A stretch of 40,482 bases of DNA, from IMG/VR virus record IMGVR_UViG_3300047375_000099, positions 1 through 40,482 of that record. The stretch is one strand, 5' to 3'. The stretch is from a virus. Below, one piece after another: positions 6,675 through 35,742 of this stretch. The position numbers were made by a program, and so were the translations under genes. How positions within the stretch are numbered: the first letter of the stretch is position 1; every line of letters begins with the position of its first letter. The notes below the pieces were generated by a model. That model was given only the letters and a program-made list of their open reading frames with translations. It was not told the DNA's origin and searched no databases.

Positions 6675-6677
6675 AAT

Positions 6678-6710: not shown

Positions 6711-8585
6711 TTAACCTCCTATACTCGCATCGTCAATTATATTTCTATCTAATTCTTGTGCAGATGTAACTTGACCAGAAACTACAAATGCTTGTATTGG
6801 TATTTGTGATTGTCCACCAATAGCTGATGCCAATTGATTTGTCCCACTTGCACCAACTATATTAAATGCTGGAGGTGTAGATGGAGCAGTTGGAACAGAT
6901 GGAATAGGTGGTTTTGATGTATCTACATTACCACCAGATACTCCACTTGCTTGACCAATTGCAGTAGCACCAATACCAGCTATTGCTAATCCAGCACCAA
7001 TCTTGGTCATTGCTATTGATTTTGCAGTAGCAGCTAAAGATGCTGGTTTTAATGGATTAAAAAGAGGAATACCAGTTGGTGTTGGAATAAAGAATGGTAT
7101 TTTAGATTCATTAAATTTTGCAGATGCAATAGATTGACTTGCACCTATTACTACGTTAGCAATAGCAGCACCCTTTTCTAATATTAAACCAGCAGTAGCA
7201 ATTGCTTTATTTTTACCAGCTATTTGTTGCAATAACCCACTTAAACCAGCAGCAAAACCAATATACTGCATATTTATTTCTCTTTTTCTTTGTGCTATAT
7301 TTTCTTCTAGTGCAATTTGTTCAGCAGCAAATTGTCTTGCTTTTTCTGCATCTGCAATTTCTTTTTCATTTTTAATCACTTCTTGCTCATCATCATATTC
7401 TTTCATTCTATCAACGTGGGCTTTTCTAGCTTCAAATAATAATCTATTCTTTTCTTCTTCGTTTTCAATAGTCTTATTAATAAGTAAAATTTGAGCATCA
7501 AGTGTTTGTTGAGATTCTATTTCTGCTAAATCTCTACCTTCTTTACCAATTTTTAATAATTCTTTTTTATTTTCTAATTGTTCTTTATCAAGAGAATTTA
7601 TATTTATTTTTTGTTCGGACATTTGACCAGTAACTCTTGCAGTAACTGCTGCTTGTTCGTTTAATGCTCTTTGTAATTCTAATTGATTTTCGTCATTATC
7701 ATTTTGTTTTACTTTAGCTCTTGCTAAATCAACTGCTACTTGGGCATTGGCTTTCATTACTCTGCCTTGTTCTGTAAGTATTTCGCCTAATTTTTCATTT
7801 GCTTCCCTTCTTACTTTAAATGTTAAAGTTTCATCATCTCTTATTTGTCTTTGTTTTTCAGCTTGTACATCATAAAATTCAATAAGACCCTTGTTTACCT
7901 CTTCAAGTAAAGCTGATTTTTTAGCTAATTCAGTAATATTAACGGCAGTTTCTATAACTTCGGTAGCGTAGTCTTTTATAGCTTTTGCATTTTCTTTTAT
8001 AGATTCTCCAAATGGAATTTGAGAGAGTAAAACATCTTTAAATGATTTACCAAAAGATTCCATAGCTCCTTCAAAATCTCTATTAAATAACTTTTTAAAT
8101 CCAGCACCAGCATTTGTAAACCTACCAACAAGACTATCAAATTTATCTGTAACATTATCTTTAAAACTTTCCCCAAAAGATTTCATTGATTCTTGAGGGT
8201 CATCAAAAACAGATTTCATTTTTTTTCCTACATCGTCAAAATTATCTAAAACTAATTTTACAAAATCATTTGTAACTATTGAGATAGCCTCCATTGTTAC
8301 ATTAAATGCGTCTAAAAACTTTTGATTTTGAGAAAGAACTTCTTTTATTTTAGCAAATGCAGCAATTAGTAATCCAATACCAGCAGCCTTTAAAGCATTA
8401 CCAATACTCTTTATACCTAAAGATGCTTTTTTAGAAGATGCTTCAACATTCTTTAAAGAATCAGCAGTATCTTTATTTGAATCTACTATTTGTTTATTTA
8501 AACCTTCAATAGATTTTTTTAAATCTTCAATTTCACTTGTTGCTTTATCTGTTTTTGCTACTAAATCAATTACTATTTTTTCCAT
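6711..8585 (-). CDS. Tail tape measure protein, type A copy
   Basis: A 624-residue protein. Residues 1-60 form a coiled coil (SEIEDLKKSIEGLNKQI), a hydrophobic Ala/Gly/Ile-rich helix follows (ALKAAGIGLLIAAF), the middle is a long charged helical region with many QRQIR/EEKNR-type repeats, and Gly/Ala-rich hydrophobic segments lie near residues 440-560. It ends with the conserved FNIVGASGTNQLASAIGGQSQIP and ELDRNIIDDASIG shared with type B (713 residues, 36542-38683). Tape measure proteins set tail length, so the length difference predicts a slightly longer tail in B. It overlaps the tiny upstream gene by 13 nt. Confidence 0.85.
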   Translation of the reverse strand: MEKIVIDLVAKTDKATSEIEDLKKSIEGLNKQIVDSNKDTADSLKNVEASSKKASLGIKSIGNALKAAGIGLLIAAFAKIKEVLSQNQKFLDAFNVTMEAISIVTNDFVKLVLDNFDDVGKKMKSVFDDPQESMKSFGESFKDNVTDKFDSLVGRFTNAGAGFKKLFNRDFEGAMESFGKSFKDVLLSQIPFGESIKENAKAIKDYATEVIETAVNITELAKKSALLEEVNKGLIEFYDVQAEKQRQIRDDETLTFKVRREANEKLGEILTEQGRVMKANAQVAVDLARAKVKQNDNDENQLELQRALNEQAAVTARVTGQMSEQKININSLDKEQLENKKELLKIGKEGRDLAEIESQQTLDAQILLINKTIENEEEKNRLLFEARKAHVDRMKEYDDEQEVIKNEKEIADAEKARQFAAEQIALEENIAQRKREINMQYIGFAAGLSGLLQQIAGKNKAIATAGLILEKGAAIANVVIGASQSIASAKFNESKIPFFIPTPTGIPLFNPLKPASLAATAKSIAMTKIGAGLAIAGIGATAIGQASGVSGGNVDTSKPPIPSVPTAPSTPPAFNIVGASGTNQLASAIGGQSQIPIQAFVVSGQVTSAQELDRNIIDDASIGG

Positions 8586-8716
8586 TTTAATTCTTGTTTT
8601 TGTCTTTTAAATACTTCTTTAAAACTATCTGGAAATTTATTCTTTCCTTTTGCTAATTGTACAATCTCTGCATTACAATCTGTGTCCTTCAACAATTCTA
8701 ATATTTCTTTTATCAT
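8573..8716 (-). CDS. Tiny tail-module protein, type A copy
   Basis: 47 residues (MIKEILELLKDTDCNAEIVQLAKGKNKFP...). Its ATG overlaps the stop of the FN3 tail gene (TAATG) and its 3' end overlaps the tape measure start. Type B has a 46-residue homologue (MIKNIVDLLQIAKG...AQGKNALP) at 38674-38814 with the same overlaps. The conserved pattern (MIK.I..LL, QLAKGKN..P, K.K near the end) supports translation. Function unknown. Confidence 0.6.
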   Translation of the reverse strand: MIKEILELLKDTDCNAEIVQLAKGKNKFPDSFKEVFKRQKQELKWKK

Positions 8717-11157
8717 TATGGTAATGTATTAATTACTAATGCACCAGATGGTATTGATTCATTTAATAAAATATCATAAGCAACTACTGTTATTGAATAT
8801 GATGTTGCTGGACTTAATCCAGTAATAGTATCTGAATAAGTTGTTTGTAAAGGTTGTGCCATTGCTCCACCAACTGCTACACCATTTGCGTAAACAACAT
8901 AATAAGACATTGTAATATTATCTGGAGATGTGCTTGGATTCCAAGTAACAGTAAATGATGTACTTGTTATATTTGATGCAACTAATCCAGTAACTTGTGT
9001 TGGAATATTACCACTTGATGTTAATATTGATGTAACATCATTTAATAATTCAAATTCAGATTTACCAGTTTTTAAATTAGTTTTTATTGAGTTTATTTTA
9101 TAAGCATTTTCTCCAAATTTTACTAAATCATTCAGCTTTAAATTATAATAAAGACCAAATGGTAAATAAGCACTTACTTTTGTTATTCTTCTTCTTGCAT
9201 TAAAAACATCTTGAATATAAGTCTTGTAATTAGTTTCAAATAAACTATCTGTAAAAGCCAAAGGGTCTACTGCTGGTTGATTTGCTTGATACTCGTTTAT
9301 CTCATTACCAAAATGTATATTAGATTTACTTGCAGTTGATGTTAAAGCTAAAGCATTTGATGGGATATAGTAATCTGTAATATCTTCAACACTACTTGTT
9401 TCTGTATCTCTTATTCTTATTGATGTTGATGATGATTGTCTTATAGGGTAAAATAATAAAGGAGAGCCAAAATAAGGCTCTTGGTTGTCATCTACAAAGT
9501 AACCCCATTGAACACTTGTTGCACTTCCACCATCTACATCATAAAGCCTTTCATATTGCATATGCTCAAAAGGTAATTCTAGTTTATAAGATTTACTTGG
9601 TGCATCAAATATATCTGAATTTAAACTATAAGATAAAGACCCCCATTTTTGATTGTTTAACTGCTCAAATTGTTTAGCTAAAAAAGTTCCTAAACCTTTG
9701 TATGTAAAATCAATGTGTTTAAAAGGTAATGCTACATCAACAGTTGAATTTTCTGTATCTATGTATTTAGTTATATCAATTGGTGTTGTTGAGCCAGATG
9801 CATAATAACTATCTAAAGTTTTTACAACAATAACCCCATCATTATCTACATAAGCAGTTAAATTAAACATTTTAAAAAGACCAGTTAAAAATTCTATAAT
9901 AGTCATTTTAGGCATCTGCTCTTGAATATTAAATTCAGTAAATGCAGTTGTAGCAAATGCAGATGAATTTGAATAAACCATTTGTCCATTTTGTCCAAAG
10001 CCTAAACCTCCTTGTGTCCAACTTACAGTCCATTGAATACTACCAGCTGCAAAAGTCATATTAGTTGATGATGCAATTTGTATTGTGTATGTACTATTAT
10101 TAAAAGGTACTATTATTAATTGCTTTGCTCCAGTACCAGTTGTTTCTCCTACTATTGTTGAGCCATCTCTGATAACTCTAATTGTATATGCATCTGTTGT
10201 ATTTGGAGGTGTTACATTTAGATTTAAAAAAGATATGCTATAAGGAGATTGAGCAGTTAATGCTAAAACACCATTTAAAACATTTGATGTTGATGGCTGA
10301 CAATTAGTAGTTGGTACACAAACTGTTGTTCCTAATTCTGTTACTTGTGTAAAGTTTTGTAATACTTGTGCTGGTGCATCAACGTGACCTTTTTTTCTAT
10401 GCAACCATAAAAACAAATTATCAAATTCGTCATTTGTATTATCATTAAAAAAGTCATCTGAAAAAGTTAATGTTTGACCACCAATAAAAGACTCTGATTG
10501 TATAGCATCAATAATAGTTTGTACTTTAATTGCATATTTAAACTGATTCCATTCAACACCATTTTGATTGTGTGTACCAGTTCCGTGATGTGATATATTT
10601 CTTATTCCTAAATCTGGATTAGGAGGAAAATTAACGTGGCTAGAACTATCGTAAATTAATCTGTTTGTATGTGTGATTAAAGGCACTATAATATTACCAC
10701 TATTTTCAGCATTCTGCATTGCATCAGTAACATCATCAAAACTATAAATTTTATTATAGTCATTTAATTTTTGTAAAGATGATAACTGACTATCAGCAAG
10801 AACGTCTTTTATATTTATAGTGTTTCCAAAAAAAGTAATATTGTATGTGTGAGGTACGTTATTTTTTAACTTAACACCATTTAGTTTTATCAAGCCTTCT
10901 TTAAAAGAAAGATTGTTTAGTTCTAGTGTTGATTGTTTTTTAATTCTTGCATCGTAGCCTTCTTCAATACTAAAATCATAATAGTGTTTAAATATCTTGT
11001 TATTTGTTTTTGATGCTGGTATTGCAAACGTTCTTGTAAATTCAGTAAATATTTTACTGATGTCTTTTACGTTTTGAATAGATTGCGTTAATACAACACT
11101 TTCATCTTCAAATAAATCTACTCTTTGACCTTCTATGTATAGTTGTATTTTTTGCAT
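8716..11157 (-). CDS. Large tail protein with C-terminal fibronectin type III domain, type A copy
   Basis: 813 residues. The N-terminal 150 (VDLFEDESVVLTQSIQNVKD, FTEFTRTFAIPASKTNNKIF) resemble a tail hub/baseplate start common in flavobacterial phages. Middle blocks (FNIQEQMPKMTIIEFLTGLFKMFNL, PLLFYPIRQ, IHFGNEINEYQ) are shared with type B. Residues about 722-813 are one FN3 domain (VTWNPSTSPDNITMSYYVVY, TITGLSPATSYSITVVAYD). The gene lies between the distal tail protein and tape measure. It probably forms part of the tail tip; FN3 domains often bind surface sugars. Starts 1 nt after the previous gene ends. Confidence 0.65.
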   Translation of the reverse strand: MQKIQLYIEGQRVDLFEDESVVLTQSIQNVKDISKIFTEFTRTFAIPASKTNNKIFKHYYDFSIEEGYDARIKKQSTLELNNLSFKEGLIKLNGVKLKNNVPHTYNITFFGNTINIKDVLADSQLSSLQKLNDYNKIYSFDDVTDAMQNAENSGNIIVPLITHTNRLIYDSSSHVNFPPNPDLGIRNISHHGTGTHNQNGVEWNQFKYAIKVQTIIDAIQSESFIGGQTLTFSDDFFNDNTNDEFDNLFLWLHRKKGHVDAPAQVLQNFTQVTELGTTVCVPTTNCQPSTSNVLNGVLALTAQSPYSISFLNLNVTPPNTTDAYTIRVIRDGSTIVGETTGTGAKQLIIVPFNNSTYTIQIASSTNMTFAAGSIQWTVSWTQGGLGFGQNGQMVYSNSSAFATTAFTEFNIQEQMPKMTIIEFLTGLFKMFNLTAYVDNDGVIVVKTLDSYYASGSTTPIDITKYIDTENSTVDVALPFKHIDFTYKGLGTFLAKQFEQLNNQKWGSLSYSLNSDIFDAPSKSYKLELPFEHMQYERLYDVDGGSATSVQWGYFVDDNQEPYFGSPLLFYPIRQSSSTSIRIRDTETSSVEDITDYYIPSNALALTSTASKSNIHFGNEINEYQANQPAVDPLAFTDSLFETNYKTYIQDVFNARRRITKVSAYLPFGLYYNLKLNDLVKFGENAYKINSIKTNLKTGKSEFELLNDVTSILTSSGNIPTQVTGLVASNITSTSFTVTWNPSTSPDNITMSYYVVYANGVAVGGAMAQPLQTTYSDTITGLSPATSYSITVVAYDILLNESIPSGALVINTLP

Positions 11158-12327
11158 TTATCTTATGTCATTTAAAACATTGTAAGAATTTTCAAACTCA
11201 ATTGTGTATTCAACTAACTTGTCATTTAAGCTAGTCTTATATGTAATATCACTTGTCTTTATATTGATTGGTAATACTTGTTCGTCTGTATTTGTTAAGT
11301 TTGTTATCCATACTTTTTCAGATAACATTAATTGTTTAAATACTTCGTTATAAGATTCACTTAAAAAACCACTACTTAACGTCATTGATTCGTTTGCAGT
11401 AATGTTAAAATCTTTTTTTGTATGTACACTCGTATCGTAATTATTAGCATAAGTTAAAGTATTGGCTTTATAACTTTCTCTTTTAGTAGTCATTTGCTCA
11501 ACTTTCTTTTTAAAGAAATATATATCTTGTAATACACCAAACTTGTTTACAAAGGTTATTTTCTTTGGCTCATATTTACATTCATCAATAGTTTTTACAT
11601 TAATGATATCAAGTGTGCCATCAGTATTACCAATATGTATAGCATCTACTTTTCCAATACTTAAAGTGTTTAAATATTGTGAGATACATTTATTATCTTC
11701 AAATACACCTAGATAATTTTTAGCTACTCTTGACTTAAAAGAATCGTATGGGCTTATTCCGTTTATACTAATATGTGCTATTTGTTCTGTGGTTAGTATA
11801 GAGCCACCAGCATTGGTATAAGTACCAACAATTTCTCCATCTCTTAAAAAAGCAATATTAACTTTTTCTCCGATATAAAGAGGTATTCTATAAATATTAT
11901 CATCTAAAGCAAACACTTCTCTGTTTGTCATTAAGAGATTTTTACCAGTATAAGAATAGAAACTACCTTCTTCAAAATAAGAATAACCATCCAATGCTAA
12001 ATCAATCGATGTTGCTTGTTGTAATTGACCACCATTTGAATCAAAAGATGTCTTTACAATTCGCACCCACTTACAAGTATAGTATTCATCAGCAGCAAAA
12101 TAAAAACCACCAAATTGCATATCTAAATAATCTCTAATGAGTTCTGATATTTCAAAATTTATTCCAGTAGCATTTGGTAATATTTGTTTTCTTAAAGAAT
12201 ATTGAGGTGTGCCAGTATAACCAGTATTTTTATTTCCAGTATATATTTCAATATCCAATGTAGCATAAGCTATATTTACTATTGCAGTTCTTACAAAGTA
12301 AGGACTTCTTGTATTAATTATTGCCAT
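11158..12327 (-). CDS. Tail structural protein, probably distal tail / baseplate
   Basis: 389 residues, starting MAIINTRSPYFVRTAIVNIAYATLDIEIYTGN. It is beta-rich with a LRKQILPNATGINFEISELIRDYL block and a later TIDECKYEPKKITFVNKFGVLQDIYFFKKK. This start is frequent in Bacteroidetes phage genomes directly before the large hub protein. Position suggests a distal tail or baseplate component. It overlaps the previous gene by 14 nt. No type B counterpart is inside the window. Confidence 0.5.
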   Translation of the reverse strand: MAIINTRSPYFVRTAIVNIAYATLDIEIYTGNKNTGYTGTPQYSLRKQILPNATGINFEISELIRDYLDMQFGGFYFAADEYYTCKWVRIVKTSFDSNGGQLQQATSIDLALDGYSYFEEGSFYSYTGKNLLMTNREVFALDDNIYRIPLYIGEKVNIAFLRDGEIVGTYTNAGGSILTTEQIAHISINGISPYDSFKSRVAKNYLGVFEDNKCISQYLNTLSIGKVDAIHIGNTDGTLDIINVKTIDECKYEPKKITFVNKFGVLQDIYFFKKKVEQMTTKRESYKANTLTYANNYDTSVHTKKDFNITANESMTLSSGFLSESYNEVFKQLMLSEKVWITNLTNTDEQVLPINIKTSDITYKTSLNDKLVEYTIEFENSYNVLNDIR

Positions 12328-18630: not shown

Positions 18631-18784
18631 TATCTTTATATTTATCTTTTAATGATATGTAATGGTAATCTGATTCGCTTAACTTTAAATCTATTAAGTC
18701 ATCCATTGCTTCTTGCCTTCTAATGGGATTTGGTAACTTGTCAATTAGTTGTTGTAGTTTCTGTATTAATTTTCTTTTGTACAT
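18623..18784 (-). CDS. Small early protein, unknown
   Basis: 53 residues (MYKRKLIQKLQQLIDKLPNP, IRRQEAMDDLIDLKLSESDY...), basic and helical. Overlaps the end of the MazG-like gene. No family recognised. Confidence 0.45.
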   Translation of the reverse strand: MYKRKLIQKLQQLIDKLPNPIRRQEAMDDLIDLKLSESDYHYISLKDKYKDKC

Positions 18785-18999
18785 AATGTTTGTTTTAGTT
18801 TTTCAATATATAATGTTGCATCCATTAATTCTTCTTGTAGGTGTTGTAGCCATTCAGAGGCGCTTAAATCGTTTCTATCCATTGTCTTGTTGTATTTCTC
18901 TATACCAACTCTTGAACATTCTTTATATGAACTTACAACTGATTTAACAATACTATCTTGTTCTTCTTGCATCTCTGCCCATTTTTCTCTTGTATTCAT
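18766..18999 (-). CDS. Small MazG-like helical protein, paralogue 1
   Basis: 77 residues. The C-terminal half (GIEKYNKTMDRNDLSASEWL, QHLQEELMDATLYIEKLK) matches the protein at 21874-22095 (KYGTTLKDDPADFDSWLNHL, QEELMDAVNYIE). The EEL.DA..Y..R/K pattern recurs in short phage proteins often annotated as nucleotide pyrophosphohydrolase-like (all-alpha NTP-PPase). The metal-binding set is incomplete, so catalysis is uncertain. ATG overlaps the previous stop (TAATG). Confidence 0.5.
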   Translation of the reverse strand: MNTREKWAEMQEEQDSIVKSVVSSYKECSRVGIEKYNKTMDRNDLSASEWLQHLQEELMDATLYIEKLKQTLCTKEN

Positions 19000-19569: not shown

Positions 19570-20331
19570 TTAAATGTTTAAATCATAAAAACTTTTATCT
19601 TTTAAATAATTAAAATAACTATCTGTAGCTATATTTAATTTTTCATACCCTCCTTGTATAAAGTCATCACTAAATTCAAAAAATTTAACTTCTTGAGTTT
19701 TTTTATCTACAACAACATATTTAAATTCAAATGCATTAAACAATTTTAAATACAATGCAGCTTGCAAATCATAATTCCAGTGTAATGCTGATTCATCAAA
19801 TCTGCTAATATCACTTGTTGTTTTTAAATCTATAACTATTCCTGGTAAACATATATCTGCTTTACCTCTAAAAGGTAGACCGTTATAATAACCTATTTCA
19901 GGTTTTTCAAAGTGAGCAAATCTAACCATTTCTCTAAACTCATCATTTTCTAAAACAGAATCTGCAATATTTTTACATCTATTAAGTTCTGAATTAGTAT
20001 AAACTGTTTGGGGTAATTGTTCTTGTACTGCTAATTTATAAGCCTTACTACCTTTTGTTGAATCAATTATAGTTAATTCATCTATTCTATGTGGTTCTAA
20101 AGAAAGTAAATGTATTAACCTACCATCTCTTAATGCTTGAGACTCTTTTGCTTTATTATTTTTATTAAGCATTTCAACATAAGATTCAGGTCCTTCAAGT
20201 AAACTTTTACAAGTTGAACTTGATAATGCATTTTTACCAAGATAACCATAGTAAAATTCATCATTCATCATTTTTTTTAAGATATCTTCTTTTTTAAATA
20301 TCTCATTATTAAGTAGTTTTATTTCTTCCAT
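19570..20331 (-). CDS. RecE/Cas4-like PD-(D/E)XK exonuclease
   Basis: 253 residues of the PDDEXK-like phage exonuclease group related to RecE C-terminal domain. Visible elements: GKNALSSSTCKSLLEGPESY start, ALRDGRLIHLLSLEP, EIGYYNGLPFRGKADI followed by IVIDLKTTSDIS (the D..x..D-x-K catalytic pattern) and HWNYDLQAALYL (QxxxY). It should resect DNA for annealing by the ERF protein at 24264-24797. It lies in the compositional island 19.6-22.1 kb. Start overlaps the stop of the GIY-YIG/MazG gene. Confidence 0.8.
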   Translation of the reverse strand: MEEIKLLNNEIFKKEDILKKMMNDEFYYGYLGKNALSSSTCKSLLEGPESYVEMLNKNNKAKESQALRDGRLIHLLSLEPHRIDELTIIDSTKGSKAYKLAVQEQLPQTVYTNSELNRCKNIADSVLENDEFREMVRFAHFEKPEIGYYNGLPFRGKADICLPGIVIDLKTTSDISRFDESALHWNYDLQAALYLKLFNAFEFKYVVVDKKTQEVKFFEFSDDFIQGGYEKLNIATDSYFNYLKDKSFYDLNI

Positions 20332-21095
20332 TAGTTGTTTTTTACAAATGTTCCGTTAATCATTTTACCTTGTCTTGATTTAATTACATCATAAGCTGAA
20401 TTAATACAATCTTCTATGTTATGTCCTCTTAACTTTGCTAAGTTAGTTAATACAACAACTATATCCCCAATAGCATCTATAACTTCAGGCTCATCATTTT
20501 TCAATATAGCTTGCGCTAATTCGCCCGCTTCTTCTATAAATTTTACATATTGAGTTTTAGCATCTCCTGATTTATATATACCTTTATCTTCTGCCCATTG
20601 TCTAATTAAATCAAATATATTTAAATTTTCTAATTCTTTATTTTCAATTAAAAAATCGTATGCATTTATTAATGATTGATTATATATAAACATTTCATTA
20701 TTAAATTGTGATTTTTTTAAATTTTTTAAAATCCAATCAGATAATTCTTCACATATAATTATATCTCTTCCATTTAAATCATTTATAACACCAAGATTTA
20801 ATAAAAACTCTTTATCAATATTACTCTTTTGCACTTTAAATGTTACTGTGTGGTTTGTTTTTTTAATCATTTTTTTTGTTTTTGTTTTATTATTAGTTAA
20901 ATTTTCATAAGTGTTTAAATCAACTTTATAACCAAGCTGCTCTTGAAAATATCTTTCTGCATTTGATGCTTTTTTAATATCTTTACTTTTGAATAAAATA
21001 GTATAATCTTTATAACCTTGTTCTTGCTCAACTCTTTTCTTTAGATTTTTTGTGCAACCTATTTTTATTCCTTTAATATAATACACATAATACAT
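20331..21095 (-). CDS. GIY-YIG nuclease domain fused to a MazG-like NTP pyrophosphohydrolase
   Basis: 254 residues in one open frame. Residues 1-60 are a compact GIY-YIG-type domain: MYYVYYIKGIKIGCTKNLKKR with a following Glu47 (NAERYFQEQLG). Residues 75-150 are a linker of no clear family. Residues 155-245 are MazG-like: EEAGELAQA (Glu188, Glu189, Glu192) and EVIDAIGDIVVVL (Asp207, Asp211) give the metal-binding EExxE and D-x3-D set. MazG-fold enzymes hydrolyse (d)NTPs, including dCTP. The pairing with the dCMP methylase-like gene just upstream suggests removal of ordinary dCTP and attack on unmodified DNA; this is inferred. Confidence 0.7.
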   Translation of the reverse strand: MYYVYYIKGIKIGCTKNLKKRVEQEQGYKDYTILFKSKDIKKASNAERYFQEQLGYKVDLNTYENLTNNKTKTKKMIKKTNHTVTFKVQKSNIDKEFLLNLGVINDLNGRDIIICEELSDWILKNLKKSQFNNEMFIYNQSLINAYDFLIENKELENLNIFDLIRQWAEDKGIYKSGDAKTQYVKFIEEAGELAQAILKNDEPEVIDAIGDIVVVLTNLAKLRGHNIEDCINSAYDVIKSRQGKMINGTFVKNN

Positions 21096-21110: not shown

Positions 21111-21881
21111 TTATATTGCTACTGGAGCAGTTATTAATTTATCAAATTTATAATTTTCAATTATTAATTTTTTGTTATTGTATTTATAAGAAGGTAATTT
21201 ATATACTTTAGTTTTTAAATACTTTAAAATTGATTCAGTTTGATTGTTATATATATGAGCATCTACAATTTGTAAATCAATCCTATTCGCTTTTAATTTA
21301 GTTTTTTCGCTTATATATAAAAGTAATTTTGAAAATAATGCAATATCATAAGGTATTCCTAAAAATAAATCTCCTGACCGTTGCAATACAAACATATTTA
21401 AATTATCATCAATATCAACAAAAAATTGAAAATATAAATAACAAGGAGGTAATGCCATCTCTTCTAATTCACTTGGATTCCATAAAGATATAATATGTCT
21501 TCTACTATCTTTATTATTGTTTAAAGAGCTTATAACAGCCTCTAATTGATTAATTGATTGACTATTAAAGTTTAACATTTGATAACCATAAACTTTTCCT
21601 AACTCTCCTTTTTCATCTGCCCAAGCATCCCATATTTTTACATTATTATCTTTAAATCTTTTAATGTTTGTTTCACCATTAATAAACCAATCAAACTCTG
21701 TATTAAATACTTTTTGATATATTTTACGACCAGTAATCATTGGAAAACCATCGTTTAAATTCCAAGAAAGTGATTGATTAAATAAAGATTTACTTCCTAC
21801 TTTAGTTCGGTCGTTTCTATTTGTACCATTTTTAAAAGCATTTAATAATATACTTTTATATTTTTTTTCAAAATTATTCAT
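21111..21881 (-). CDS. Thymidylate synthase-fold enzyme, predicted dCMP (hydroxy)methylase
   Basis: 256 residues from the ATG at 21881; a longer frame to 21941 exists but the family starts at MNNFEKKYKSIL. Conserved ThyA features: Glu62 (EFDWFINGETN), IWDAWADEKGELG, SRRHIISLWN (Arg127/128), catalytic Cys147 in LPPC, QRSGDLFLGIP, DAHIYNN and terminal APVAI. The decisive residue is Asp179 in PYDIALF. True thymidylate synthases have Asn there, and Asn-to-Asp is the known switch from dUMP to dCMP; T4 dCMP hydroxymethylase uses Asp179 and Cys148. Tyr follows the catalytic Cys where ThyA has His. Whether it adds methyl or hydroxymethyl cannot be read from sequence. Confidence 0.75.
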   Translation of the reverse strand: MNNFEKKYKSILLNAFKNGTNRNDRTKVGSKSLFNQSLSWNLNDGFPMITGRKIYQKVFNTEFDWFINGETNIKRFKDNNVKIWDAWADEKGELGKVYGYQMLNFNSQSINQLEAVISSLNNNKDSRRHIISLWNPSELEEMALPPCYLYFQFFVDIDDNLNMFVLQRSGDLFLGIPYDIALFSKLLLYISEKTKLKANRIDLQIVDAHIYNNQTESILKYLKTKVYKLPSYKYNNKKLIIENYKFDKLITAPVAI

Positions 21882-22095
21882 CGCATTTACATTTTTTTTC
21901 TTTAAGTTCAAATCTAGCTCTTTCAATATAATTAACTGCATCCATTAATTCTTCCTGTAAATGATTTAACCAACTATCAAAATCAGCAGGGTCGTCTTTT
22001 AATGTTGTACCATATTTTTTAAAACCTACTTCTGAACGCCCAATAATTTTATTAATTACTTTTTTAATAATAGGGTCTTTTATTTTTTTTATCAT
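21874..22095 (-). CDS. Small MazG-like helical protein, paralogue 2
   Basis: 73 residues: SEVGFKKYGTTLKDDPADFD, WLNHLQEELMDAVNYIERAR. Paralogue of 18766-18999 but with different compositional markers (it contains CCTG and CAGG). It overlaps the start of the dCMP methylase-like gene by 8 nt and would be made with it. Probably a nucleotide-binding or pyrophosphohydrolase-like helper; weakly supported. Confidence 0.5.
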   Translation of the reverse strand: MIKKIKDPIIKKVINKIIGRSEVGFKKYGTTLKDDPADFDSWLNHLQEELMDAVNYIERARFELKEKKCKCDE

Positions 22096-28750: not shown

Positions 28751-30031
28751 TTATTTAATTGTATAATTTTGTCCGTTAGCCATTTCTATAAATGACTCCC
28801 AAGATGTTAATTCTTCTATTTCGCTATCTGTTAATGCAGTGTTGAAGTATTGTATTTGTTTAGTTTTTCCGTAGAAATCATTACCTCCACTTCCACTATC
28901 AAAATTCATATTTGTTAAAGTTGCTTCTGAAAATGTTGCACCACTTATATCTGTAGCAACTTCAATACCATTAACCCATAAAGCAAAATCATTTTCTTTA
29001 TATTTAAGTGCAATTTTATTAAATTCCGTTATATTTGAGTCATTATAAACTAAAACTGCTTGATTACTTCCATTATACACAACTGCAACAATTCTATCAG
29101 ACGCACCTGTGTACCCAATTCTAATAACGTTGCTAGCCGTTCCATCATTTAAGGATAATCTTCTTTCAGACAAATCATCACTCAAAGCACTAATCTCTGC
29201 CATCAAAACACCTTCTGAATCATTAAACGTATCTGAACTACCTGCATCATTACATACATCTGCTAGTCTAGTTGCTGTTTGTCCGTTAGTTGGGATGTAG
29301 GATGTTGGGTAAGATTGTTCTTCTAGTTGTGCTCCCCAAAGGTAAACTCCACTTGTTCCATCTCCTGTAAAAGTAATATTGTTGTTTTTGCTTAAATAAA
29401 TACTTGTTTTAACAGATGTGGCATTTAATGTTATTGTTATAGAGCATCTATACCACCCATTACCATAATCTTCAATTTTAGAAGCATCAGGCGCTGCAAT
29501 AAATTCATCTAATATAGTTCCATTTTCTAAATCAAATATCCTTCCTTGAGTTGCAAGTAGTAAACCAACCTGTTTTATTTCATCTGCTTTTGCAAAAATA
29601 GAATAAGTATATTTAGAACCTGAAGAAATACTTGAAATTGTATCTTCCATTCCGTGTGTTCCACTAACTGACGTATCTATTAATTTATCAGCATTTAAAG
29701 TTCCATCAAGCGAAATTGAAGTATTAGGAGAAATAGATGACCTAAACTTACTCCAAGCAGCGTTGTCAAATTCTTCTGAATAAGGTATTAAATTTGTAGA
29801 TTGTGGCTCTAATAATAAACTAGGGCATCCATTTACAACACCATCAATCAAAGGATATTCAAGTCTAGGAACATTAATTGCCATTTCTTCTATTAACCCA
29901 CTACTATTTATTCTTGTCGCAGTTGTTGCCCTTGTAAAGTCAAAGTCCCCAACCCCACTTTCAGGTAGTACACTATAAACCTTACTTGCTTTATACCCTG
30001 ATGGTATCATTGCTAAACTTGGTGTTGCCAT
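28751..30031 (-). CDS. LamG/concanavalin-like tail fibre or receptor-binding protein 1
   Basis: 426 residues: GDFDFTRATTATRINSSGLI, LLLEPQSTNLIPYSEEFDNA, a jelly-roll-like middle (YGNGWYRCSITITL, YLWGAQLEEQSYPTSYIPTN) and C-terminal LamG-like domain (FALWVNGIEVATDISG, IQYFNTALTDSEIEELTSWE). The start is equivalent to the partial gene at 1-305. Bases 29724-29831 are identical to the first 108 bases of the window. Type B tetranucleotide pattern. Confidence 0.7.
   Translation of the reverse strand: MATPSLAMIPSGYKASKVYSVLPESGVGDFDFTRATTATRINSSGLIEEMAINVPRLEYPLIDGVVNGCPSLLLEPQSTNLIPYSEEFDNAAWSKFRSSISPNTSISLDGTLNADKLIDTSVSGTHGMEDTISSISSGSKYTYSIFAKADEIKQVGLLLATQGRIFDLENGTILDEFIAAPDASKIEDYGNGWYRCSITITLNATSVKTSIYLSKNNNITFTGDGTSGVYLWGAQLEEQSYPTSYIPTNGQTATRLADVCNDAGSSDTFNDSEGVLMAEISALSDDLSERRLSLNDGTASNVIRIGYTGASDRIVAVVYNGSNQAVLVYNDSNITEFNKIALKYKENDFALWVNGIEVATDISGATFSEATLTNMNFDSGSGGNDFYGKTKQIQYFNTALTDSEIEELTSWESFIEMANGQNYTIK
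29724..29850. repeat. Direct repeat, copy 2 (matches 1-127)
   Basis: Identical to 1-108 over its first 108 bases and to 1-127 except one base. See copy 1. If the window represents a circular type A genome, this is the point where the circle closes, giving about 29.7 kb. Confidence 0.9.
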
Positions 30032-30074
30032 TTTAAATATCTTTAATTATTTTTATTTTTATTATCACAGAATA

Positions 30075-30248
30075 TTAATTGAAATCTGCATTATTAACAC
30101 ATCCAATGGCTTCAATAGTACCACCATCTGCGATAACTCTAGCTTCATATTCTCTTGTCAAAGGGTTATCGAAATCATAATAGATGCTTCCCCACCCTAC
30201 TTTTTCAGGGCTACCCCACCAACTTGTATTATAGATTTCATTTGCCAT
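30075..30248 (-). CDS. Small virion-module protein with RVIADGGTxE mini-domain, type B copy
   Basis: 57 residues: MANEIYNTSWWGSPEKVGWG at the start, matching 310-492, and REYEARVIADGGTIEAIGCV near the end. The second half is the recurring mini-domain also inserted in 32900-33364 and 38811-40482. Overlaps the end of the tiny basic gene. Confidence 0.6.
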   Translation of the reverse strand: MANEIYNTSWWGSPEKVGWGSIYYDFDNPLTREYEARVIADGGTIEAIGCVNNADFN

Positions 30249-30327
30249 TGCTTACTTTTTTTTTGTTTTTTTTCTTCAGAAAAACTTTTAACTTTTCAAT
30301 ATTCTTTTTCTTAGGTTTGTACGTCAT
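30238..30327 (-). CDS. Tiny basic protein, type B copy
   Basis: 29 residues (MTYKPKKKNIEKLKVFLKKK...). ATGA overlap with the adaptor stop; homologue of 470-568. Very lysine-rich. Conservation in both modules is the support. Confidence 0.55.
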   Translation of the reverse strand: MTYKPKKKNIEKLKVFLKKKNKKKVSNGK

Positions 30328-30830
30328 AAAACCCATCCGTTAAATGTTGAATCATAACTAGGGTAAATATCATCATTCGTATTACTTGTATATTCAGGAT
30401 ATGTTGCCTGATTAAAACTCATAAAATCAATAAATCTTCTAGAATACCATTCTGCATTAGTTCTTGCTTTTTCAACTAAAAAATCTATTTCGTTTTTATC
30501 TACTGAAACTGAGTTTTCTGATGTATGTTTAAATACCCCTCCTTGTTTTACCTGATATGCAGCAAAAGGATAGTAATTAGCCTGTGAATACCATATTAAC
30601 ATAGGTACAATATAGTCATCTAAAATTGTTTTCCATCTTGCATTAGCAGAATCATCTATATTTGGTATTGCAGCAGCTAAACCATTATACAAATCTGTTC
30701 CCATTATTTGCTGAACATCTATTTCCTGTGCAATCTTTACAAATTGTATGAACTTGTCAGTCGAAATATTCCCATCCATTATGGAATTTCTGATAAGGTC
30801 TGTTCTGTTTATGAATAATTGTGTAGCCAT
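30324..30830 (-). CDS. Head-tail adaptor (connector) protein, type B copy
   Basis: 168 residues, MATQLFINRTDLIRNSIMDG, STDKFIQFVKIAQEIDVQQI, FAAYQVKQGGVFKHTSENS. Homologue of 568-1068 with the same neighbours. Starts 1 nt after the portal gene ends. Confidence 0.6.
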   Translation of the reverse strand: MATQLFINRTDLIRNSIMDGNISTDKFIQFVKIAQEIDVQQIMGTDLYNGLAAAIPNIDDSANARWKTILDDYIVPMLIWYSQANYYPFAAYQVKQGGVFKHTSENSVSVDKNEIDFLVEKARTNAEWYSRRFIDFMSFNQATYPEYTSNTNDDIYPSYDSTFNGWVL

Positions 30831-32903
30831 CTATCTTCTTTTATTTGTTGGTAAAAATCCCTCGTTTGGCATATCAATAGGTCGTTTAGCAACCAACTCA
30901 CTATTCTTTTCAGGTTTAAATCCTGCCTTTCTAGCTTGATTTACACTAATTGTAGGTGCAAGTGGGCTATTTATATCAATACTCCCTTTTCCTTTCTTCA
31001 TATAAGTCTTACGCATCCAAAAATGGTGACAAGCCCCTCCGCCTTTGTAAAACCAAATAGAATAGGTATCAGCACCTCTTGGTCCCCACCCTGCATTAAC
31101 TGCCTGTTTACTCATCATTTCAATATCTTCTTTTCGATATATCTTTTTAGCTGCTACCATTTTCTGACAAAAATCTCTAGTAACATTTTTACCCTCTTTA
31201 TCAAATGTATCTTTTAATGGTGCATATTGATAACGAACTTTAAATTGTGTTCCATCAACTGTTTCATCTTGACTACTTTTTGCATTTGGTCTTGCAGTTC
31301 CTGTTGATACAAATTCCCATAGTTTAGAAAGTAAACTTTTTCCTTTTGTGTTTAGTTGGTTTATTTGGTAATCCAAAGCATCTTCTGCTTCATAATCAAC
31401 TTTTCTTTCATCAATTAATTCCCATTCACTTAAATCTTCATCTTCACCAAAAGATTCCAAAGTAACTTCTTCTAACTTAATACAATTAGGTACTTTCTTT
31501 CCATCTTTTTCTTTCATACCTCTTTGCTCGTAACCATCCCAACAAGGTGCTTTAAGTTCTTCGTGACTTACGCAAGGCATAAAATAAGTAACACCCTCTA
31601 CCTCGTGTTCGTGATATCCACCACACCCCATTTCTTCAGCTACCTTTTCAGCTTCTTCTTTAGTTTCATAAGCCTGTTTTCCATCTATCTTTTTTAAGCT
31701 AAACTTCTGCATCTCAACTCCTGTTTCTTCTTCAATAGTTTCCTTATCTTGAATAGATTGGTCTACTTCAGTAAATTCTAAAGGTTGTAAGGTCGTAAAG
31801 TATAGATTTAAGCTAATATCATTGTAAGCTAATATCTTATCAAAGCTATCTATTAAAAGTTCCTGAAATGGTCTAATAACAGTGTTATCCATTAATAAAC
31901 TAGCAGTCTTTATTTCATCTGCATTGTTTCCTAATCCTGATTGGTCTTTTATACCTAATAACATAGGACTTACAATCCTGTGAGCAACCATTATTTTCTT
32001 AGTTGATTCTTCAGAAAGGAATTGATATTGGTTATGTGCATCAGATAACTGCACAGGGGTTATTTCTGCTTGACTTTCTTTATTGTCGTTAAAAGCGAGT
32101 ATGAATTTCCCTGCATTGCTAGACCCTGAAAACTTTTCAGCAATCTTATTTTCTATTAATTGCCTTTCCTGTTGGTTAGGAGTACCATTGTTAAAGTTAA
32201 TTAACATACTAGGGCTGAGTCCGTTAAGGATATTATTTAAGTGATAGTTTGATACTTCTTCTTCAAGTTCTGCGTATTGCAACCCACCTTGATAATCCAC
32301 AGGGGAATAGTAATAAAATCCTGCCTTATAAGGTTGTATGTATAATATCTCAATATTTTCCCTTGACATACCAAAAGCAGGTATTCTTAAAGGAACATCA
32401 TTTCTTTTTATGTTTGCCCAATCTTTAAAATAATAATAAGCAGGAACATCACCCTCATCATTACATTTTTCTGCTCTTAAAGTTTCAATAGGTAAGTGTT
32501 CTATCTGTGCAATAGTTTTTCTATCCTTAGAATAGATAATTTGGACTGCACATTGCCCCATCAATTTTAAATCGTAGCATAATTTTCTAACTACGTCTTT
32601 TTTAAACAAAGAAACCATTTGAGCATACTCATTTGGCTTAGCACTAGAATTAGTAGCATTTAATCCTTTTCCATAAATAGCTTGACTGATTCCATTTATA
32701 GCAGCATTATTTGTTGGACTACCATTATACCTATCAATTAAGTATTGAAAATAGTTATTATCAGCACCATATTCAATATAGTCTTTTCCTGATACCTCTT
32801 TAATTACAGGACTTGTATAAGTACTTAAATTTACAAAACCAAACTCTGATGTTTTTGTTTTTTTTATAAATTGTCCTTTATTATTTCTTAATCTTGTTTT
32901 CAT
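30831..32903 (-). CDS. Portal protein with accessory domains, type B copy
   Basis: 690 residues. The portal body (residues about 25-395) is close to that of 1072-2898. Between body and C-terminal domain it has about 70 residues missing in A: a MGCGGYHEHEVEGVTYFMPC segment followed by APCWDGYEQRGMKEKDGKKV PNC. Both pieces are small Cys-containing modules often found in Bacteroidetes phage structural proteins. The C-terminal domain (FKVRYQYAPL ... GGGACHHFW) is shared. Overlaps the connector gene by 4 nt. Confidence 0.85.
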   Translation of the reverse strand: MKTRLRNNKGQFIKKTKTSEFGFVNLSTYTSPVIKEVSGKDYIEYGADNNYFQYLIDRYNGSPTNNAAINGISQAIYGKGLNATNSSAKPNEYAQMVSLFKKDVVRKLCYDLKLMGQCAVQIIYSKDRKTIAQIEHLPIETLRAEKCNDEGDVPAYYYFKDWANIKRNDVPLRIPAFGMSRENIEILYIQPYKAGFYYYSPVDYQGGLQYAELEEEVSNYHLNNILNGLSPSMLINFNNGTPNQQERQLIENKIAEKFSGSSNAGKFILAFNDNKESQAEITPVQLSDAHNQYQFLSEESTKKIMVAHRIVSPMLLGIKDQSGLGNNADEIKTASLLMDNTVIRPFQELLIDSFDKILAYNDISLNLYFTTLQPLEFTEVDQSIQDKETIEEETGVEMQKFSLKKIDGKQAYETKEEAEKVAEEMGCGGYHEHEVEGVTYFMPCVSHEELKAPCWDGYEQRGMKEKDGKKVPNCIKLEEVTLESFGEDEDLSEWELIDERKVDYEAEDALDYQINQLNTKGKSLLSKLWEFVSTGTARPNAKSSQDETVDGTQFKVRYQYAPLKDTFDKEGKNVTRDFCQKMVAAKKIYRKEDIEMMSKQAVNAGWGPRGADTYSIWFYKGGGACHHFWMRKTYMKKGKGSIDINSPLAPTISVNQARKAGFKPEKNSELVAKRPIDMPNEGFLPTNKRR

Positions 32904-33364
32904 ATTACTAAATAAGTATTATCATAACCATTATAATCTGAATATTCACCCAAGTTCAAATCGTAGTAATTATTATTTAATTGGTCAATATCTTGATTTG
33001 TGCAAAATATTCTGTCCTTGTAAATTATTTCTAAATCTGATGTTTTTACTAAATTCTCTGCTTCTAAAAAACTTAATAAACAAGCACTATTTTCAAAAGT
33101 ACCACCTGAAGAAATTACCCTTTTTTTAAATTCATCATAGCTACCTTTTATGTGATATACCTCTAAATCATAAAACCTATTCTCTGTTAAATTAAAAATA
33201 GAAGATAAATCTAAATAATTTCCATTTACTGATGCACTTGGCAATATAATAGAAACTACATCATTTGTACTATCATCTCTTAATTTTATAGTAACACTCG
33301 TTTCATATACTCTAGGTATAATCTGTATGGTTTGCTCTATTGTAGACTTTGCTAATATAATCAT
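32900..33364 (-). CDS. Small structural/connector protein with mini-domain insertion, type B copy
   Basis: 154 residues from the ATG at 33364; the frame to 33424 reads through the terminator and is not used. The start QTIQIIPRVYETSVTIKLRD matches 2895-3257. A stretch of about 28 residues containing FKKRVISSGGTFENSACLLSF is inserted before LEIIYKDRIFCT. A CGTTATA element lies 6 nt before the start, with a terminator further upstream. Confidence 0.65.
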   Translation of the reverse strand: MIILAKSTIEQTIQIIPRVYETSVTIKLRDDSTNDVVSIILPSASVNGNYLDLSSIFNLTENRFYDLEVYHIKGSYDEFKKRVISSGGTFENSACLLSFLEAENLVKTSDLEIIYKDRIFCTNQDIDQLNNNYYDLNLGEYSDYNGYDNTYLVI

Positions 33365-33370
33365 TATTAA

Positions 33371-33377
33371 TATAACG
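33371..33377 (-). promoter_or_regulatory. CGTTATA element (type B motif)
   Basis: ACGTTATA on the minus strand, 6 nt before the ATG at 33364. The orthologous type A site has TATTATATA. Type B copies also precede the starts at 35703 (8 nt) and 36505 (5 nt). Confidence 0.4.
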
Positions 33378-33411
33378 TAAAAAAATAAGTTATTTGTAAA
33401 ATCATTAAAGC

Positions 33412-33441
33412 AAAAAAAAAGCACCCAATAAAGGATGCTTA
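33412..33441 (-). terminator. Rho-independent terminator after the tube-like gene, type B
   Basis: On the minus strand AGCATCC, TTTATT loop, GGGTGCT and nine T. Equivalent in position to 3301-3332 but with a different stem sequence, so the hairpin itself is conserved rather than the bases. Confidence 0.8.
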
Positions 33442-33462
33442 ATTTTTAACTAAATAATAAGA

Positions 33463-33993
33463 TTATGCAGTTGGGTCAATTTGTGTTGCATCAGCACTTA
33501 CTGCTGCATCTAAGAAATAAGGTGCAGTTTCTTCTAATCCTTCAAAGGTTAAAGTAAAACCTGAAAGGTCTCCTGCTGCTGCTCCTGTAACTACAGTCCC
33601 TCCTGTGCATTCCATTCCATTTTCAAATCCACATAGGAAGTTGTTACCATAGTAATCTACTACTACGATATAAGGTCTAGATACTGCAAGTGTTTGCAAT
33701 TCTGCCTGAGTCTTAGCATCTAAATATGTTAAAGTTAAATTTAAAGTCTGAGTATAAAAGGTTGTCCCGTTTTCTCTAGATGAGGTTACGGTTGTTTCTA
33801 AACTAGAATTTCCTTTTACATCATATTCAAACCAACTTGGTGCAGGGCTACCATCTGTGATAGTTGCTTCCTTAGTTGTGCTATCTACTGCTATCGAAGC
33901 TATTGTTCCATAGTCTGCAAATAATACTTTCTTTATGCCTCCAAAGGCACTTTTACAAGGTATTTTTCTCCCTGTTGTTAATGTACAAGCCAT
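33463..33993 (-). CDS. Probable major tail tube-like structural protein, type B copy
   Basis: 176 residues: MACTLTTGRKIPCKSAFGGI, VLFADYGTIA, GNSSLETTVTSSRENGTTFY, GDLSGFTLTFEGLE. Homologue of 3358-3885 with the same flanking terminators. Same caution about tail tube versus head decoration. Confidence 0.55.
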   Translation of the reverse strand: MACTLTTGRKIPCKSAFGGIKKVLFADYGTIASIAVDSTTKEATITDGSPAPSWFEYDVKGNSSLETTVTSSRENGTTFYTQTLNLTLTYLDAKTQAELQTLAVSRPYIVVVDYYGNNFLCGFENGMECTGGTVVTGAAAGDLSGFTLTFEGLEETAPYFLDAAVSADATQIDPTA

Positions 33994-34010
33994 TGTTTTT
34001 TATGATTTTA

Positions 34011-34046
34011 AAAAAAAAGGGTAAGTAGATAAATTCTACCTACCCT
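34011..34046 (-). terminator. Terminator or attenuator between capsid and tube-like genes, type B
   Basis: On the minus strand GGGTAGGTAGA, ATTTA loop, TCTACTTACCC (one mismatch), then TTTTTTTT. Corresponds to 3911-3941. Confidence 0.75.
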
Positions 34047-34068
34047 ATTTTATTGGTTAATTAATTAA

Positions 34069-35043
34069 TTATGCGTAAGATACGATATCAGAAGCGATTC
34101 CGAATTGTACCCCTGAAGTAAAACGCATTACCATTCTAACATTGTTAGAAGCGTCTAAATCTGCCATATCTAAAACCTTAACTTCTTGAGTTGAGTTTAG
34201 TAATCCCGTACCAAAGTATAGGTTGCTTTTCTGTGCAGCATACATTTTGTCATCAGATAATCCCGGGCAAACAAATATCTTAACTCCGTTTACAGTTAAA
34301 GACCCATTGTTCCACCATTGAGTACCCATATTCTGTACACCATTTGCTCCAAGTCCGTTAGCACCAAATCCTCCTAATGCTTGAACATAAAGTTTTGCAG
34401 CTTTAGATGAAATGTATAAGAATAAATCTTCTTTTCCATATAATGCAGCAGGAATAGCTTCAACAACGTCAGATAATTTCTCTACGATGTTAGCAGCAGT
34501 TAATGCAACAGATGTTAAAGCCTGACCTGCAGGTACATCTCCTGCAGTTACAGCAGCAGCGATTAATTTTTCAAATCCATCAAATGAATTTTTAGATGCA
34601 GCAGCAGTATCTCCTTGCCAAATGTTAAACTCAGTATTTTGTGCAACCTCAGCAGCAACGTGAGCAATCATAAAGTCTGCAAATTTTGGAGGTAAAGACT
34701 GACCTAAACCATATCCCATTTGCTGAGATTCCCAATCGTTTACGAAGTCATACTTACATAATTGTAAATTTACTTGTAATTCAGTTGGTTGTAAAATTCT
34801 TTCAGTTAATGTTACAGTTGATGTTGGGTTACAATCACACCCTGCAGCAGTTACGATTGCATCTGTTGCTAATTTCTTGATTACTTCTTTAAAAGCAATG
34901 TTAGATTTTACTGTGATTCCTCCATCATCAATAGTTGATGCACTCAATAAAGCAGCAGCGATATACTCGCCTGCAAATTGTCCTGCATAAGTCGTAGTGA
35001 TGTTTGTTGTAGTAGCTAATTCTACGTTTTTTAAATTACTCAT
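34069..35043 (-). CDS. Major capsid protein, type B copy
   Basis: 324 residues with TYAGQFAGEYIAAALLS, LQPTELQVNLQLCKYDFVND WE, KEDLFLYISSKAAKLYVQAL and VRMVMRFTSGVQFGIASDIV. Slightly longer than the type A protein, mostly from a Gly/Asn-rich loop near residues 225-245 (NGLGANGVQNMG). HK97-fold capsid by context. Confidence 0.8.
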   Translation of the reverse strand: MSNLKNVELATTTNITTTYAGQFAGEYIAAALLSASTIDDGGITVKSNIAFKEVIKKLATDAIVTAAGCDCNPTSTVTLTERILQPTELQVNLQLCKYDFVNDWESQQMGYGLGQSLPPKFADFMIAHVAAEVAQNTEFNIWQGDTAAASKNSFDGFEKLIAAAVTAGDVPAGQALTSVALTAANIVEKLSDVVEAIPAALYGKEDLFLYISSKAAKLYVQALGGFGANGLGANGVQNMGTQWWNNGSLTVNGVKIFVCPGLSDDKMYAAQKSNLYFGTGLLNSTQEVKVLDMADLDASNNVRMVMRFTSGVQFGIASDIVSYA

Positions 35044-35049
35044 TGTATT

Positions 35050-35703
35050 TTATTTATTTAATTTATTTAATACTCTATCTAATGTTGATGTAAATTTACC
35101 TTTAGCAAATTCTACTTTTTTAATTGTTTTGCTTTTAGATTCAGGATTGTGTTTAATTGGTTTTGCAGATGCTTCTGATAATTCAGCTTTAACTTCTTCA
35201 GGAATTTCTTCTGAAAATTCTTCTTTTACAGTTCTTGACTTTAAAGGTGCTTGTACTTCATTTGACATTTCTTCTTCTTGCATTTTGCTTTCCTTGTCAG
35301 CCTTTAAGTCTGCAATCGCATCTTCTAGGTTTTGAATTCTTTTTTCCATTCCCTCCCAATCTGCAACATCTGCCATTTCTTCTTCTTTTTTTTCTTCTTC
35401 TTCAGCTAGGTCTTCAGTAATTTCTTCTCCCTCTTTTGTTTCCTTTGCAGGAACTTCGTCAGATACTTCTCTAACATCTCCTATAACACCTTCTTCTTCA
35501 ACTACAACTAATCTACCATCTTCAAGTAAATATTCTCCGACAGGCATTGCTACCTTTTCATCATCTGTTACTATAAAGATTTCTTTTCCTTTTTCAAATG
35601 ATTCTGCACTTACTATTGTGCCATTCTCTAACTTGGTTTCTTCAAGTTTAACTTCAATATTTAGAAGTGTTTTAATTTGATTTAACATTTCGGTTGATTT
35701 CAT
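35050..35703 (-). CDS. Acidic scaffold-like protein, type B copy
   Basis: 217 residues: KSTEMLNQIKTLLNIEVKLE, MPVGEYLLEDGRLVVVEEEG, acidic EEEEKKEEEMADVADWEGME, coiled coil (KRIQNLEDAIADLKADKESK) and basic end (SKTIKKVEFAKGKFTSTLDR). Homologue of 4876-5499. Scaffold role by context. Confidence 0.6.
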   Translation of the reverse strand: MKSTEMLNQIKTLLNIEVKLEETKLENGTIVSAESFEKGKEIFIVTDDEKVAMPVGEYLLEDGRLVVVEEEGVIGDVREVSDEVPAKETKEGEEITEDLAEEEEKKEEEMADVADWEGMEKRIQNLEDAIADLKADKESKMQEEEMSNEVQAPLKSRTVKEEFSEEIPEEVKAELSEASAKPIKHNPESKSKTIKKVEFAKGKFTSTLDRVLNKLNK

Positions 35704-35711
35704 ATTATTTA

Positions 35712-35718: not shown

Positions 35719-35742
35719 ATTATTAATTTAAATTTTGCATTT

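What the first reader, a model, noticed from the sequence alone, without database searches (positions are those of the whole stretch)
21111..21881. Thymidylate-synthase homologue with Asp at the base-recognition position: likely dCMP (hydroxy)methylase
The position equivalent to E. coli ThyA Asn177 (PFNIAS) is Asp179 (PYDIAL), with Cys147 and Glu62 kept. In thymidylate synthase this Asn-to-Asp change converts the enzyme to dCMP, and T4 dCMP hydroxymethylase has Asp at this place. This predicts 5-methyl- or 5-hydroxymethylcytosine in the DNA of a small flavobacterial siphovirus.
Basis: partly seen in the sequence, partly recalled or inferred. Interest (0 to 1): 0.8.

Follow-up and report, generated by a model that had tools for sequence, protein, structure and literature searches.

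The report
Phage dCMP-methylase gene beside nucleotide recycler
A small marine phage, probably infecting flavobacteria, carries a thymidylate-synthase relative whose active site appears re-tuned from uracil to cytosine nucleotides and which nearly always travels with a nucleotide-trimming gene, so these phages may make 5-methylcytosine for their DNA before it is copied, although no DNA has been measured.

Summary
The gene lies on the minus strand (21881/21941 to 21111). Its ThyA-like protein has Asp at E. coli position 177, with Cys146 and Glu58 kept. This is not chance: in 74 distinct related viral contigs Asp177 and Tyr176 are invariant, and Tyr147 and Leu180 are near-invariant. All 108 Asn177 enzymes in my sample have His147, bar one. 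The clade keeps the thymidylate-synthase (reductive methyl) features: Val93, Leu143, Trp83 and the C-terminal tail. It lacks the published dCMP-hydroxymethylase signature. I therefore favour a dCMP C5-methylase over a hydroxymethylase. The gene is locked to a same-strand MazG-type NTP pyrophosphohydrolase in 71 of 74 contigs, a plausible dCTP-to-dCMP supplier. By PF03819, 47 of 50 Asp-type records have MazG against 5 of 50 Asn-type records. The same kind of pairing occurs in relatives of Xp12, whose DNA is fully 5mC. Caveats: no activity or virion base was measured; this clade shows no family-A polymerase and essentially no nucleotide kinase; and the window lacks GATC and CATG sites entirely, as expected of DNA that is not fully shielded. 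Reader partly supported: dCMP yes, 'hydroxy' unlikely, modified DNA plausible but unproven.

The parts
21111..21941 (-). Asp-type thymidylate-synthase homologue, predicted dCMP C5-methylase (276 aa; 256 aa from the likelier start at 21881)
   Evidence: Pfam PF00303 2.7e-72; AlphaFold model pLDDT 90.4, best PDB match E. coli ThyA, TM 0.86-0.90
21345..21347 (-). codon of Asp179 (ThyA Asn177), pyrimidine-recognition residue
   Evidence: alignment with EcThyA; invariant in 74 contigs
21438..21443 (-). codons of catalytic Cys147 and Tyr148 (ThyA Cys146 and His147)
   Evidence: C146 in 74 of 74, Y147 in 72 of 74 contigs
21696..21698 (-). codon of Glu62 (ThyA Glu58)
   Evidence: invariant in 74 of 74 contigs
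20331..21095 (-). partner gene immediately downstream: N-terminal T5orf172 (GIY-YIG clan) domain plus C-terminal MazG/PRA-PH all-alpha NTP pyrophosphohydrolase; predicted dCTP to dCMP supplier
   Evidence: PF03819 1.8e-6, PF01503 1.6e-4, PF10544 9.9e-4; linked to the gene in 71 of 74 contigs; C-terminal fold matches MazG structures
21874..22095 (-). small upstream ORF of a phage family of unknown function, overlapping the start; role uncertain
   Evidence: phrog_11184 2.3e-11; no Pfam match
18766..18999 (-). paralogue of the small ORF above, same phage families; role uncertain
   Evidence: phrog_23240 5.7e-15; family present near the gene in 35 loci

Best explanation
The gene encodes a thymidylate-synthase-fold enzyme that transfers a one-carbon unit from methylenetetrahydrofolate to C5 of dCMP and reduces it in place, giving 5-methyl-dCMP and dihydrofolate. 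Asp179 binds and protonates N3 of cytosine, Cys147 attacks C6 and Glu62 activates the cofactor; these steps are inferred from ThyA and T4 dCH. The adjacent MazG-type protein hydrolyses dCTP to dCMP, feeding the enzyme and lowering competing dCTP (inferred). Host kinases and the host DNA polymerase would then place 5-methylcytosine, fully or partly, in phage DNA (inferred, weakest step). Shown here: the residue set, its conservation, the gene linkage and the fold. Approximate step probabilities: dCMP as substrate 0.8; methyl rather than hydroxymethyl product 0.8; 5mC present in virion DNA 0.5; complete replacement of cytosine 0.3.
For: Asn177Asp alone is reported to switch ThyA from dUMP to dCMP, giving 5-methyl-dCMP (PMC8670742). 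In that study 177 and 147 are the top two positions separating thymidylate synthases on cytosine-modified contigs from others; here both change together. Val93, Leu143, Trp83 (73 of 74) and the C-terminal tail are kept, and the fold is closest to E. coli ThyA. The Arg and Ser that specify deoxyribose (MilA study, PMC5175136) are kept. MazG is on the same strand in 71 of 74 contigs (67 downstream, 4 upstream), with or without the fused N-terminal domain. PF03819 occurs in 47 of 50 Asp-type against 5 of 50 Asn-type records. Similar pairs with PF01503 enzymes occur in AXL1 (same genus as Xp12), PaMx74, S28-C10 and Kolga. Xp12 DNA is 5mC (PMC7653180), and AXL1 DNA resists most restriction enzymes tested (PMC9206674). 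No dCMP deaminase in 37 window-clade records, so 5-methyl-dCMP is not obviously routed to dTMP by a phage enzyme.
Against: No enzyme assay and no base analysis. The window has 0 GATC (about 96 expected), 0 CATG (about 95), 0 GGCC (about 11) and 1 CCWGG (about 19), so unprotected cytosine-containing sites seem to have been costly; other small flavophages without this gene show a similar CATG purge. No phage family-A polymerase in 33 window-clade records and no clear thymidylate-kinase-like gene in 32 of them. Human DCTPP1 and E. coli Orf135 are cited as hydrolysing 5-methyl-dCTP (PMC10742078), so a MazG partner could be counter-productive unless selective. Xp12-type enzymes (AXL1, PaMx74) form a separate long branch and lack the tail and Leu143, so the analogy is not close homology.
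Confidence: 0.5

Rival explanations
1. It is a dCMP hydroxymethylase of the T4 gp42 kind and the DNA carries 5-hydroxymethylcytosine, possibly decorated further.
For: Asp at the specificity position is shared with T4 gp42. Position 147 is changed in both (Tyr here, Thr in T4).
Against: The published signature is absent: Leu, not Asp/Glu, three residues before Cys; Pro or Lys, not Ser/Thr, two before Tyr94; Trp83 and the tail are kept. T4 gp42 lies on a separate branch.
Confidence: 0.12
2. It makes 5-methyl-dCMP, but for the nucleotide pool rather than for lasting DNA modification: as a dTMP route through host deaminase, or as a dCTP surrogate.
For: Phage restriction sites are purged as if cytosine were unprotected. 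No phage kinase or polymerase was found to favour 5-methyl-dCTP. Mycobacterial dCTP deaminase digests dCTP but spares 5-methyl-dCTP (PMC10742078).
Against: No phage dCMP deaminase in the clade. Xp12 relatives combine the same two enzyme types with restriction-resistant DNA.
Confidence: 0.22
3. It is an ordinary thymidylate synthase acting on dUMP, with Asp tolerated.
For: All other catalytic residues and the tail are those of ThyA, and the fold is nearest ThyA.
Against: Asp177 is fixed with Tyr176, Tyr147 and Leu180 fixed or near-fixed across the clade, whereas 107 of 108 Asn177 enzymes keep His147; Asn to Asp is reported to change substrate to dCMP.
Confidence: 0.06

Closest known systems
Thymidylate synthase ThyA (PF00303), including the engineered Asn-to-Asp mutant
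   Same: Fold, catalytic Cys, Glu58, Arg166, Asp169, Trp83, Leu143 and C-terminal tail; the mutant makes 5-methyl-dCMP (PMC8670742).
   Different: Natural Asp177 with Tyr147, Tyr176 and Leu180; linked to MazG.
dCMP methylase of phage Xp12 and the Asp-type enzymes of its relatives (AXL1, PaMx74)
   Same: Asp at 177; NTP pyrophosphohydrolase gene next door; 5mC is the base in Xp12 DNA.
   Different: Separate long branch; Xp12 relatives lack the ThyA tail and Leu143 and carry dCMP deaminase and dihydrofolate reductase beside the gene; PaMx74 has its own DNA polymerase. The Xp12 sequence itself was not held.
T4 dCMP hydroxymethylase gp42
   Same: Asp at the cytosine-recognition position.
   Different: T4 has Asp three residues before Cys, Val at the Trp83 position and no tail; product is 5-hydroxymethyl-dCMP.
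MilA/BcmA CMP hydroxymethylases
   Same: Asp at the cytosine-recognition position.
   Different: Window keeps Arg and Ser where MilA has Lys133 and Ala176, so a deoxyribonucleotide substrate is expected.
Asp177 thymidylate synthases on cytosine-modified viral contigs (MetaGPA)
   Same: Asp177 and change at 147; PF01503 domains co-occur with thymidylate synthase there.
   Different: Those contigs were selected experimentally; the window clade was not tested for modification.

Membership tests
Thymidylate synthase superfamily (PF00303) | Profile match, catalytic Cys/Glu/Arg/Asp and ThyA fold | tested here: met
   2.7e-72; residues; TM 0.86-0.90 to E. coli ThyA
Ordinary dUMP thymidylate synthase | Asn at 177 | tested here: not met
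   Asp in the window and 74 contigs
T4-type dCMP hydroxymethylase | Asp or Glu three residues before catalytic Cys | tested here: not met
   Leu in 74 of 74; signature from PMC6400193
T4-type dCMP hydroxymethylase | Ser/Thr-x-Tyr water-binding motif | tested here: not met
   Pro (61) or Lys (13) at position 92
T4-type dCMP hydroxymethylase | No C-terminal tail | tested here: not met
   Tail (APVAI in the window) kept in nearly all members
dCMP C5-methylase (Xp12 type, Asn229Asp mutant) | Asp at 177 in an otherwise TS-like site | tested here: met
dCMP C5-methylase (Xp12 type, Asn229Asp mutant) | Activity on dCMP giving 5-methyl-dCMP | not testable with these tools
   needs an enzyme assay
dCMP C5-methylase (Xp12 type, Asn229Asp mutant) | Common descent with the Xp12 enzymes | tested here: inconclusive
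   AXL1 and PaMx74 sit on a separate long branch; Xp12 record not held
CMP hydroxymethylase MilA | Lys and Ala replacing ribose-site Arg and Ser | tested here: not met
   Arg pair and Ser kept
MazG/PRA-PH NTP pyrophosphohydrolase (partner gene) | Profile match with EExGE and ExxD-type metal motif | tested here: met
   PF03819 over cut-off; motif conserved in the complete homologues
MazG/PRA-PH NTP pyrophosphohydrolase (partner gene) | dCTP preference | not testable with these tools
   needs an enzyme assay

The most novel reading that the evidence does not exclude
In these small Bacteroidota phages, which show no family-A polymerase and almost no nucleotide kinase gene, the enzyme pair turns the dCTP pool into 5-methyl-dCTP mainly as a surrogate that host dCTP deaminases or dCTP-depleting defences cannot use, rather than as a shield against restriction enzymes, which the phage escapes by deleting the sites.
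Probability: 0.08. Interest if true: 0.8.

Novelty: new member of a known kind. Interest (0 to 1): 0.52.

Why it matters
Pre-replicative 5-methylcytosine is documented in very few phages (Xp12 is the textbook case). A broad clade of environmental phages with a natural Asp-type, ThyA-like enzyme tied to a pyrophosphohydrolase would make that chemistry much more widespread and gives a sequence rule (Asp177 and Tyr147 with Leu143, Val93 and the tail kept) for predicting methyl rather than hydroxymethyl products. The coexistence with near-total purge of some restriction sites makes the purpose of the modification testable.

Tried and rejected
T4-type hydroxymethylase: rejected as best explanation on the published residue signature. 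Ordinary ThyA: rejected on Asp177 and co-substitutions. MilA-type ribonucleotide enzyme: ribose-site residues are of the deoxy type. Phage dCMP deaminase route to dTMP: no PF00383 match in 37 window-clade records. A genome-wide palindrome-avoidance contrast between Asp-type and Asn-type phages gave no difference (Mann-Whitney p 0.88), because small Asp-type phages avoid sites and large ones do not. The tree excluding the trait columns puts the window clade plus Kolga, S28-C10 and L020 in one supported group, but long branches leave open whether Asp177 arose once or several times. The paper by Iyer et al. 2013 and the Xp12 record were not available.

Full report
Observation. The window is a 40,482-base viral contig. 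The gene is on the minus strand, 21111-21941, 276 aa. Pfam PF00303 matches at 2.7e-72. An AlphaFold model from 29 clade sequences has mean pLDDT 90.4, and the nearest solved structures are E. coli ThyA, TM 0.86-0.90.

Conservation. Homologues were collected from viral contigs and bacterial genomes. In 74 distinct contigs of the window's clade, positions 58E, 80W, 93V, 94Y, 143L, 146C, 166R, 167S, 169D, 176Y and 177D are invariant, while 147 is Tyr in 72 and 180 is Leu in 72. Among 108 Asn177 enzymes, 107 have His147. Near strains show median dN/dS 0.08. The Asp is therefore a fixed, selected feature. With the trait columns removed, the clade groups with Pelagibacter phage Kolga, the marine phage S28-C10 and L020 at SH-aLRT 98; T4 gp42 and the Xp12-type enzymes lie elsewhere on long branches.

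Substrate and product. Literature read here states that Asn177Asp shifts ThyA from dUMP to dCMP with 5-methyl-dCMP as product, and that 177 and 147 are the two positions that best separate enzymes on cytosine-modified from unmodified viral contigs (PMC8670742). For hydroxymethylation the proposed signature is Asp/Glu three residues before Cys plus Ser/Thr-x-Tyr, and the T4 enzyme lacks the C-terminal tail (PMC6400193). The window clade has Leu, has Pro or Lys in place of Ser/Thr, and keeps the tail, so reductive methylation is favoured. The ribose-site Arg and Ser that distinguish deoxy from ribo substrates in the MilA study (PMC5175136) are kept. One caution: the Xp12 relatives AXL1 and PaMx74 lack the tail and Leu143, so these features are not required for a 5mC phenotype.

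Partner gene. Immediately downstream (20331-21095, minus) is a T5orf172 plus MazG/PRA-PH protein. Its homologue is on the same strand in 71 of 74 contigs, 67 downstream and 4 upstream. In 10 of these 71 the MazG protein is short, without the fused N-terminal domain, so the constant element is MazG. Of the 3 without it, one (L047) is cut off by the end of the stretch. Searching whole records with PF03819 gave 47 of 50 for Asp-type and 5 of 50 for Asn-type. The Asp-type records are related, so this is not 47 independent events, but linkage survives divergence to about 44% identity, a changed gene order, and recurs with PF01503 enzymes in AXL1, PaMx74, S28-C10 and Kolga. MetaGPA also reported PF01503 domains co-occurring with thymidylate synthase on modified contigs. 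I infer a dCTP-to-dCMP role by analogy with T4 dCTPase (own knowledge).

Does the DNA carry 5mC? Xp12 DNA does (PMC7653180), and AXL1, of the same genus, resists most enzymes tested (PMC9206674, PMC11946847). For the window it is unproven. Against it: no phage DNA polymerase A in 33 window-clade records and essentially no thymidylate-kinase-like gene, and a striking purge of GATC, CATG, GGCC and CCWGG. The purge is shared in part by small flavophages without this gene (Fpv5: 1 CATG against 134 expected; P2559S: 0 against 64), and is absent from larger Asp-type phages and from PaMx74. Some enzymes cut 5mC DNA (BstNI digests Xp12 DNA), so the purge weakens but does not refute modification.

Host and genome. 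The portal matches only Nonlabens phages P12024S/L, at 40%, and the terminase is closest to Flavobacterium phages, at 50%, so a flavobacterial host is likely. The contig holds two diverged copies of the morphogenesis module about 29.7 kb apart, probably an assembly joining two related phages; the TS-MazG region is covered by several independent near-identical contigs, so it is not an artefact.

Verdict. A real, conserved Asp-type thymidylate-synthase homologue, most likely a dCMP C5-methylase with a dedicated nucleotide supplier: a new clade of a known kind of enzyme. The virion-DNA prediction remains open.

Noticed in passing
window 1-12300 and 29724-40482: Two diverged copies (66-79% DNA identity) of the portal-capsid-protease-tape-measure-tail module lie about 29.7 kb apart; probably a chimeric assembly of two related phages with genomes near 30 kb.
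   Followed up: partly
window 1-40482: Complete absence of GATC (about 96 expected), CATG (about 95) and GGCC (about 11), and strong depletion of CCWGG, CTNAG, AAGCTT and GTTAAC.
   Followed up: partly
L049, L052, L055, L057, L019, L088, L090, L102, L105, L020: CATG count is zero in most small Asp-type flavophage contigs, and near zero in cultured Flavobacterium phage Fpv5 and Croceibacter phage P2559S, suggesting widespread CATG-directed restriction in their hosts.
   Followed up: partly
L022 5893-6798 and 11859-12605; L150 5001-5846 and 6881-8224: Contigs carrying two thymidylate-synthase homologues, one Asn-type and one T4-like Asp-type.
   Followed up: no
L166, L167, L174, L176, L179: A subset of Asn-type viral enzymes, most on contigs of 240 kb or more, also has a MazG-family match directly upstream of thymidylate synthase.
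   Followed up: no
L113 2553-4207 (Pelagibacter phage Kolga): A cultured phage with an Asp-type enzyme flanked by a weak DUF1599 (nucleotide modification associated domain 1) match and a PRA-PH pyrophosphohydrolase; a good candidate for base analysis.
   Followed up: partly
L110 3182-5203 (uncultured phage S28-C10): Asp-type enzyme in a run with PRA-PH pyrophosphohydrolase, thymidylate-kinase-like gene and dCMP deaminase.
   Followed up: partly
L057 7754-8023 and equivalents: A DUF6378 gene sits directly upstream of the enzyme gene in many small Asp-type phages (34 loci); Pfam confirms it in 10 of 33 records searched, but not in the window.
   Followed up: partly
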